From Nodosilinea nodulosa PCC 7104 (lineage in GTDB: Bacteria > Cyanobacteriota > Cyanobacteriia > Phormidesmidales > Phormidesmidaceae): a DNA stretch of 64,000 bases. The stretch spans positions 3,218,540 to 3,282,539 of the forward strand of contig NZ_JH976537.1 in assembly GCF_000309385.1 (NCBI RefSeq). Direction: 5' to 3'. The position numbers were made by a program, and so were the translations under genes. Below are positions 50,361 through 52,525 of this stretch, piece after piece (position 1 is the first letter of the stretch; each line of letters starts with the position of its first letter). The notes below the pieces were generated by a model. That model made no database searches. It worked only from the letters and a program-made list of their open reading frames with translations, and was not told the origin of the DNA.

Positions 50361-51314
<954 letters not shown>

Positions 51315-51494: not shown

Positions 51495-51721
51495 CAGACA
51501 TCAATACAGTCTTACTAAACCCCTGATTCATCTTAAGTGTGACGCAAAAACCGACAAATTTAACCACATCTGTGCACAAATTTGGGCGGTAAATTTGCTG
51601 AGCCAAAGACAGGTCTGGCGCGCGATCGCCCCTAGGGGCAGCTCCCACCTGGAACTGGTGCTCTGGACGCCTGGGGCCGCGCGATTAAGACCGCTGACGG
51701 CAGCCGATAGTCCGGCTACCG

Positions 51722-52036
51722 TTAGGCGGTCTCTGGCTCGGTTATTCTGCCACTGCCACGGTAGGCCAGGGAGCCATGCCAAACGGAAGAAGATCCGGGA
51801 GATTCAGGATCGACCCGACCGCTGCCGCGAAAGCTGAGCCAGTTCGTGATCGCAGGCACTCGGCTGAGCCGACCGCTGCCGCGATCATCCTCGGAACGGC
51901 TAATAGCCTGTAGGCTGTGTGCAGAATGGGAGTGGAGCATGGCAGTTAGCTCCAGAGGTGCGGTAGACAGTAGCAGGCCTAGGCTAACGGCGTAGGCCAG
52001 AGGAGTCATCAGGGAATGGTTGGAGGAAGGGTGCAT
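51722..52036 (-). CDS. patX: PatX-like signal-peptide precursor with three RGSGR motifs
   Basis: 104 residues from 52036 (Met10 at 52009 possible). A hydrophobic segment (about 13-32, LAYAVSLGLLLSTAPLELTA) acts as a signal peptide. RGSGR, the pentapeptide by which PatS/PatX inhibit HetR, occurs at residues 52-56, 70-74 and 93-97, each followed by Leu, Val or Ile and then Ser, Asp or Thr. Codons are identical in the first two copies (CGCGGCAGCGGTCGG) and different in the third (CGTGGCAGTGGCAGA). It lies 422 bases upstream of hetR on the same strand, the known PatX neighbourhood. Processing and export are inferred. Confidence 0.9.
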   Translation of the reverse strand: MHPSSNHSLMTPLAYAVSLGLLLSTAPLELTAMLHSHSAHSLQAISRSEDDRGSGRLSRVPAITNWLSFRGSGRVDPESPGSSSVWHGSLAYRGSGRITEPETA

Positions 52037-52525
52037 AGGGCGTGGCCTTGTTAGCGCTTCTAGTCCTAGTTACAAACCCGCCCACCGTCAGTCAGGAAAA
52101 TCTTTATCCGTAAATCTGCGGATTTCTAAAATTTAGTAGTCCCTAGCACCGATTTACCCTGAAATTGGCGCTGGAAGTAAGAGGCTGGGGCAACGGCTCT
52201 GAAAGGGTTTGAGGCCAGTTGCCAGGGTCCGAAAGTTGGTCGGGCAGGCGGATAGGGGTTTACGCAATCTTCTTAGATCGCAAGTTAAGGGCAGGAACAG
52301 GGAGATTAGGGGCGCTGGATTGATCGGTGTCTGCGATCGCGGAAAAACCCTGGCTGCAATGGTCAGAACTGGATAAACGATCTAATCTATTGAGAATGTG
52401 TTTGTGCAGCGTATTCGCGCCCGCGCAGCTGTGGTTTGCGCAACTGAGTCCAGATCAGAGGTCTGTTCTCCTGACGCACTGCCGTTTGGGATCAGCCTGT
52501 AGCCAATCTTCCTTGAGGTGTAGCC
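52037..52525. other. Divergent promoter region of patX and the aminotransferase gene
   Basis: 489 bases without a supported gene. The AT-rich stretch 52095-52140 includes AAATCTGCGGATTT (52112-52125), arms AAATC and GATTT, about 80 bases upstream of the patX start, a possible promoter or operator. HIP1-containing sequence is near 52335. The frame 52327-52617 is a shadow. Confidence 0.5.

What the first reader, a model, noticed from the sequence alone, without database searches (positions are those of the whole stretch)
51722..52036. PatX-like precursor with three RGSGR signals upstream of hetR
Read on the minus strand, a 104-residue protein has a signal-peptide-like start and three exact RGSGR pentapeptides (residues 52-56, 70-74, 93-97). 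Each is preceded by D, F or Y and followed by L, V or I and then S, D or T. The first two copies share all 15 bases and the third uses different codons, so the third is not a fresh copy; it has been kept at the protein level. RGSGR is the PatS/PatX core that binds HetR and blocks it, and hetR is the next gene on this strand. PatX next to hetR is known. A single short precursor offering three equal signal units is the unusual part, and I cannot say from memory whether multi-motif PatX has been reported. It would act like a multi-copy pheromone precursor and raise the dose of a lateral inhibitor in a filament.
Basis: partly seen in the sequence, partly recalled or inferred. Interest (0 to 1): 0.95.

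Follow-up and report, generated by a model that had tools for sequence, protein, structure and literature searches.

The report
Three-in-one precursor for HetR-blocking signal
Just upstream of the developmental regulator gene hetR, a filamentous cyanobacterium carries a patX gene whose one short protein holds three exact copies of the RGSGR signal, and relatives hold up to nine, so each protein would likely be cut into several inhibitor peptides instead of one.

Summary
A 104-residue ORF (51722-52036, minus strand) has three exact RGSGR motifs and the next gene is hetR. It is a patX ortholog: hydrophobic N-terminus, RGSGR core, hetR linkage, and a DIF1-like box (TCCTGA) 61 nt before the start, where 30 of 30 patX loci from a heterocyst-forming family have TCCGGA. 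Several motifs per protein is the rule in the window's order: 48 of 52 genomes with a hetR-linked patX have two to nine. The 18 linked ORFs of a first survey outside the order, and the 30 heterocyst-former loci, have one each; a later search found hetR-linked multi-motif cases (3, 5, 8) in another family, so amplification arose more than once. In 20 genus members all 15 motif residues are invariant while all 15 codons vary silently. The units are not equal: the residue before RGSGR is mostly acidic in the first and nearly always tyrosine in the last. HetR keeps the peptide-binding residues. Most likely the precursor is exported and cut into several XRGSGR hexapeptides that restrain HetR; export, cutting, dose and role are inferred. 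Published deletions in Leptolyngbya BL0902, whose patX has three motifs by my identification, did not show simple HetR antagonism. The founding PatX paper could not be read.

The parts
51722..52036 (-). patX ORF, 104 aa, three RGSGR motifs
51869..51883 (-). unit 1, RGSGR (preceded by D, followed by L)
51815..51829 (-). unit 2, RGSGR (preceded by F, followed by V)
51746..51760 (-). unit 3, RGSGR (preceded by Y, followed by I)
51944..52009 (-). hydrophobic N-terminal stretch, residues about 10-31, predicted export signal
   Evidence: Kyte-Doolittle 12-residue maximum 1.96; low-confidence helix 10-46 in the AlphaFold model; no signal-peptide program was available
52092..52097 (-). TCCTGA, DIF1-like box, 61 nt before the start codon
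   Evidence: 67 of 69 linked patX ORFs have TCC[GT]GA at 58-65 nt; TCCGGA at 62-63 nt in 30 of 30 heterocyst-former loci; place checked
52067..52072 (-). TAACTA, possible -10 element, 19 bp after the box
   Evidence: read; conserved in the genus alignment; not tested further
50361..51299 (-). hetR, next gene on the strand

Best explanation
This is a patX gene whose product carries three RGSGR units in one polypeptide; it is predicted to be exported and likely cut into three hexapeptides (DRGSGR, FRGSGR, YRGSGR) that would bind HetR and release it from DNA. Shown here: the gene, its three units, its hetR linkage, the shared promoter box, purifying selection on every unit, gain of units in separate lineages, and a HetR that keeps the peptide pocket. 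Inferred: export; cutting on both sides of each unit (in the solved complex N-terminal extension clashes and the free C-terminus sits at Arg223, so an uncut unit should bind poorly); more ligand per precursor; and restraint of HetR in a filament without heterocysts. The residue kept before each unit more likely marks processing than affinity, because published work found that its side chain does not affect HetR binding.
For: Promoter box at one place in one- to nine-motif genes and in heterocyst-formers. Motif residues 15 of 15 invariant in 20 of 20 genomes with 15 of 15 codons varying; linkers invariant in 9 of 59 columns. 48 of 52 order genomes with linked patX have two or more motifs. 62 of 72 homologs have exactly three, 7 four, 1 five, 2 two. 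Separate gain in another family: one clade for all multi-motif rows rejected, p-AU 6.7e-10. Pocket residues R236, E266, E267, D269, D283, D291 kept in 48, 48, 41, 47, 48, 47 of 48 HetRs beside multi-motif PatX. Literature: PatX export, PatP cutting and HRGTGR binding at 88 nM (PMC12756182); XRGSGR hexapeptide tightest, side chain of X without effect (PMC4649674 passages).
Against: No peptide, transcript or cleavage data for this clade. In BL0902, which I identify with a three-motif PatX, the double deletion resembled the patX deletion and not the hetR deletion in two gene groups, and the authors conclude independence from HetR. The box is TCCTGA, not the tested TCCGGA. No signal-peptide predictor was run and the start region of this protein has no lysine or arginine before the hydrophobic stretch. 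PatP was not looked for in this genome. In five Leptothoe-type HetRs and two others E254 is replaced.
Confidence: 0.68

Rival explanations
1. The units feed more than one receptor: PatX peptides act on HetR and also on a HetR-like paralog, so part of the PatX effect does not pass through hetR.
For: The window genome has a HetR-like gene at 49% identity (G000:C1:5006954-5007832) that keeps five of the six pocket residues, with V in place of E254; E254A only raised the Kd to 91 nM (PMC4649674). BL0902 has three hetR-like ORFs and its PatX effect looked HetR-independent. Many order members have two or more HetR-type genes, while 77 of 77 genomes outside the order with a match had one at 1e-60.
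Against: Leptothoe-type genomes (genus code g7) have the most motifs and in the assessable cases one HetR, so unit number does not follow receptor number. No binding data for the paralog.
Confidence: 0.15
2. The extra units are neutral: tandem duplication adds copies that do not matter, and one unit would do.
For: Near-identical tandem units exist: L020, L022/L023, L038/L039, and P0062 against P0069.
Against: In the genus all three old units are invariant under heavy silent change; only 2 of 72 homologs show a broken unit, both in the middle one. Multi-motif PatX is kept in most of a whole order.
Confidence: 0.07
3. The intact protein binds HetR as a multivalent tether, without being cut.
For: HetR is a dimer that binds two peptides (PMC4649674), and several units in one chain could bridge sites.
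Against: Uncut PatX without its signal did not interact with HetR in a two-hybrid test (PMC12756182 section 8); N-terminal extension lowers affinity and the free C-terminus lies at Arg223.
Confidence: 0.05
4. A PatX-like secreted protein whose repeats serve some other role (for example outside the cell) and not HetR.
For: patX deletion in BL0902 changed 428 genes with effects judged independent of HetR.
Against: Exact RGSGR core, hetR linkage, shared DIF1-like box and kept HetR pocket.
Confidence: 0.05

Closest known systems
PatX of Anabaena/Nostoc PCC 7120 and other cyanobacteria (Elhai and Khudyakov 2018, not readable here; PMC7761841 and PMC12756182 seen in part)
   Same: Small protein with hydrophobic N-terminus, RG[ST]GR core, DIF1-type box at the same distance, tied to hetR.
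   Different: Three units (relatives two to nine) where the heterocyst-former loci read here have one; residues before the core are D, F, Y in place of H; the box is TCCTGA in place of TCCGGA; the host lineage makes no heterocysts (general knowledge of Nodosilinea).
PatS and HetN of Anabaena
   Same: RGSGR core that binds HetR.
   Different: PatS is a very short peptide with the core at its C-terminus, HetN a reductase-like protein with one internal core (both as described in PMC4649674 and PMC7761841 passages); here three internal units in a 104-residue protein with no Pfam domain.
Rap-Phr (RRNPPA) propeptides with duplicated pheromones (PMC11343458, abstract and passages)
   Same: Works alike: one secreted precursor, several signal units, some identical and some slightly different, up to eight copies reported there.
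   Different: No homology shown; the receptor here is HetR, a DNA-binding protein of another fold, and the host is a cyanobacterium.
Yeast alpha-factor precursor (recalled)
   Same: Repeated signal units in one secreted precursor.
   Different: Eukaryotic mating pheromone; no relation claimed.

Membership tests
PatX | RG[ST]GR core | tested here: met
   three exact RGSGR
PatX | hydrophobic N-terminus (feature recalled from the founding abstract) | tested here: met
   12-residue hydropathy maximum 1.96 at residue 13; 68 of 69 linked ORFs reach 1.6, L047 does not
PatX | DIF1 motif within 69 nt upstream (distance recalled; TCCGGA from PMC7377430) | tested here: inconclusive
   box at 61 nt but TCCTGA, one base off; the same place holds TCC[GT]GA in 67 of 69 and TCCGGA in 30 of 30 heterocyst-former loci
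PatX | occurs with hetR | tested here: met
   next gene on the strand
PatX | export and cutting by PatP | not testable with these tools
   known for Nostoc only (PMC12756182); no PatP sequence was at hand to search with
PatX | inhibits HetR | not testable with these tools
   HetR pocket kept; BL0902 deletions speak against a simple form
PatS | very short peptide ending in RGSGR | tested here: not met
   104 aa, no motif at the C-terminus
HetN | reductase-like protein | tested here: not met
   no Pfam or NCBIfam match
RRNPPA (Rap-Phr) | linked receptor of the RRNPPA kind | tested here: not met
   the linked gene is hetR, PF03574 and PF18460

The most novel reading that the evidence does not exclude
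A modular bacterial morphogen precursor: filamentous cyanobacteria repeatedly turned PatX from a one-signal into a many-signal precursor (up to nine), with position-specific units (acid-led first, tyrosine-led last) released as distinct hexapeptides and read by HetR and a HetR-like second receptor, so that unit number and order set the strength and timing of inhibition along a filament.
Probability: 0.25. Interest if true: 0.88.

Novelty: new variant of a known kind. Interest (0 to 1): 0.7.

Why it matters
What hetR and patX do in filaments without heterocysts is called a mystery in PMC11298460 (section 14). Precursors with one to nine selected units are a natural dose series for a HetR-directed signal, in a clade with a genetically tractable strain (BL0902). 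The result also corrects a survey: PMC12756182 (section 14) names Leptolyngbya cf. ectocarpi LEGE 11479 as having hetR but no patX, yet that strain encodes a six-motif PatX (P0081), with the box 62 nt upstream in a genome that carries the identical protein (L275).

Tried and rejected
Rejected: chance; pseudogene (intact frame, selection in 20 genomes); a second good patX in the genome; PatS, HetN and Rap-Phr membership. A GGGN5CCC site at 51636 between patX and hetR was set aside because the window holds 37. The AlphaFold model of PatX was low in confidence (mean pLDDT 55.8), so no fold search was run. Looking for HetR hood differences between multi-motif and other HetRs gave one position passing my cut-offs (253, E against mostly D), which I judged uninformative. 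Twenty stretches of 15.6-20 kb around hetR in family f7 held a PatX-like ORF in 2, one motif each, plus one 26-aa RGTGR ORF that looks spurious; a protein search was used instead. Pfam accession PF28278, precomputed for three homologs, is not in the local library, so its name is unknown to me. Papers: six searches, with six phrases for several RGSGR motifs, found 0 papers; of the rest I saw listings, and passages or sections of the seven papers named by PMC id in this report.

Full report
WHAT IS THERE. The ORF at 51722-52036 (-) encodes 104 residues with RGSGR at 52-56, 70-74 and 93-97. hetR follows on the same strand at 50361-51299. Where a source names the homologs of the protein, they are hypothetical proteins of Nodosilinea or of strains filed as Leptolyngbya, Phormidium, Spirulina or unnamed cyanobacteria. 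The window's genome has 6.89 Mb in two contigs and a nifH match over the family cut-off. NCBI places Nodosilinea and Leptothoe in Nodosilineales; I have no tool result for the GTDB name of the order.

CHANCE AND SELECTION. Composition predicts 0.00085 RGSGR per protein; none of 200,000 shuffles had two. In 20 genus members (L002, L003, L007, L009, L010, L011, L013, L016, L133-L144; the more distant L146-L148 were aligned for the promoter but left out here) all 15 motif residues are invariant and all 15 motif codons vary silently. Linker columns are invariant in 9 of 59, N-terminal columns in 6 of 30. pN/pS is 0.007 for motifs, 0.51 for linkers, 0.45 for the N-terminus.

SPREAD IN THE ORDER. 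63 genomes of the order were searched with HetR. 52 gave a hetR-linked ORF with RG[ST]GR: 4 with one motif, 5 with two, 27 with three (L020 is cut by a contig end), 11 with four, 3 with five, 2 with nine. The other 11: no HetR match in G013, G019, G056; only pieces of hetR in G018, G040, G060, not fetched then; G048 at a contig edge, not fetched; L028 and L053 cut before the patX position; L123 and L124 with only diverged HetR-like genes and no such ORF. Of these, G018 and G013 later showed PatX with five and six motifs (L270, L275). Second HetR copies L056 and L057, the window's own paralog L058 and five further paralogs of order genomes (L125-L129) have no such ORF upstream.

OUTSIDE THE ORDER. 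77 genomes of the phylum sample outside the order had a HetR match at 1e-60. I fetched 65 of the 77; 17 of 65 had a linked patX (18 ORFs, since L108 has two), each with one motif. In the 80 named loci, 11 more linked patX have one motif each (L156, L166, L177, L179, L181, L191, L198, L199, L202, L203, L208; L156 is the same contig as L062, and their GTDB orders were not checked). Family f7 contains heterocyst-formers: G360 and G163 share contig lengths with Tolypothrix and Desmonostoc records. There 106 of 118 genomes matched a PatX query at E 0.1; the 30 best loci were read and 30 of 30 have one motif. The weaker 76 were not read.

EXCEPTIONS AND REPEATED ORIGIN. A six-motif metagenome protein (P0094) matched 18 of 388 genomes of the class. 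Outside the order it brought hetR-linked PatX with five (L266), eight (L268, the same gene as L284) and three motifs (L272) in family f15, beside f15 genomes with one (L278, L279; L062, L103, L104). L276 (family f49) has four RGTGR with neither box nor hetR in the stretch; L267 has three RGSGR among RASGR copies, TCCGGA at 83 nt and no hetR in the stretch. A Jaaginema protein with three motifs (P0099, E 0.039) is filed under Leptolyngbyales. On a HetR tree of 62 rows (12 near-duplicates taken out by hand) the three f15 multi-motif rows form a clade (support 100/96) apart from the order, and one clade for all multi-motif rows is rejected (p-AU 6.7e-10; the group was named after a first tree). 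The four single-motif genomes inside the order sit in one group with a two-motif genome, so loss and ancestral state cannot be told apart.

UNITS ARE NOT ALIKE. In 140 distinct multi-motif precursors (106 proteins plus 48 loci, repeats removed) the residue before the first motif is D 98, H 16, E 15, Y 5, F 3, N 3; before the last it is Y 125, W 8, F 4, H 2, E 1. The residue after is L, I, V, F or M in 136 of 140 first and 137 of 140 last units. In 22 single-motif ORFs it is H 13, E 4, R 2, D 2, Y 1 before, and R 7 after. Many proteins are close relatives, so these are not independent events. In HetR binding the residue before RGSGR gives only its main-chain amino group (PMC4649674 passages), so I favour a role in processing.

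PROMOTER. TCC[GT]GA begins 58-65 nt before the start in 67 of 69 linked patX ORFs (66 TCCTGA, 1 TCCGGA; exceptions L043 and L055; L020 was left out for lack of a start); every other 8-nt bin from 10 to 153 nt has at most 2. The 30 f7 loci have TCCGGA at 62-63 nt, the DIF1 box of PMC7377430 (passages). So one- and nine-motif genes share one promoter layout, and the ATG at 52036 is favoured over the later start used in some public entries (P0029, P0032, P0042, P0049).

RECEPTOR. By alignment to solved HetR (the offset to Anabaena numbering is mine) the peptide-binding residues of PMC4649674 are R236, E266, E267, D269, D283, D291 here, kept in 48, 48, 41, 47, 48, 47 of the 48 HetRs beside multi-motif PatX, and in 69, 69, 60, 64, 69, 64 of the 69 others. 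The paralog keeps five of six.

MECHANISM AND LIMITS. In Nostoc, PatX is exported, cut by PatP, and its hexapeptide inhibits HetR (PMC12756182, abstract and sections 8, 10, 13-15, 32). Applied here, one precursor would yield three ligands; this step is inferred. Against a simple reading, in Leptolyngbya BL0902 the patX-hetR double deletion resembled the patX deletion and was contrary to the hetR deletion in two gene groups, and the authors conclude that PatX acts largely independently of HetR (PMC11298460 section 14). BL0902 is, by its chromosome length of 4,309,234, the genome G038, whose PatX (L029) has three motifs. The passages I read of that paper do not mention motif number. A second receptor could reconcile this.

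NOVELTY. None of the searches brought a statement of multi-motif PatX; I read passages or sections, not whole texts. The founding PatX paper is not held and may show such sequences, so the architecture may have been seen.

Noticed in passing
G000:C1:5006954-5007832 (L058): A HetR-like paralog at 49% identity in the window's genome keeps five of six peptide-pocket residues (E254 is V); no RG[ST]GR ORF stands upstream of it.
   Followed up: partly
P0081 and L275 (contig of 4,928 bases): Leptolyngbya cf. ectocarpi LEGE 11479, named in PMC12756182 as hetR-positive and patX-negative, encodes a six-motif PatX. In the genome with the identical protein the contig ends 233 nt or so after the gene, so hetR linkage could not be seen.
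   Followed up: partly
L108 (G101, family f11): Two single-motif patX genes in tandem upstream of hetR, each with its own TCCTGA box: another route to more signal.
   Followed up: no
L276 (G557) and L267 (G620): L276 has a four-RGTGR protein without box or hetR nearby; L267 mixes RGSGR with RASGR copies.
   Followed up: no
window 52087-52131, minus strand: A strongly conserved block (AATCCGCAGATTTACGNATAAAGATTTTCCTGACTGA type) stands upstream of patX in the genus, partly an inverted repeat; its binding protein is unknown.
   Followed up: no
P0056, P0061, P0062: Three homologs bear a precomputed Pfam accession, PF28278.1, that the local Pfam library does not return.
   Followed up: partly
G000:C1:2612167-2612979 (L232): A nifH match over the family cut-off: the strain may fix nitrogen although no heterocysts are expected.
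   Followed up: no
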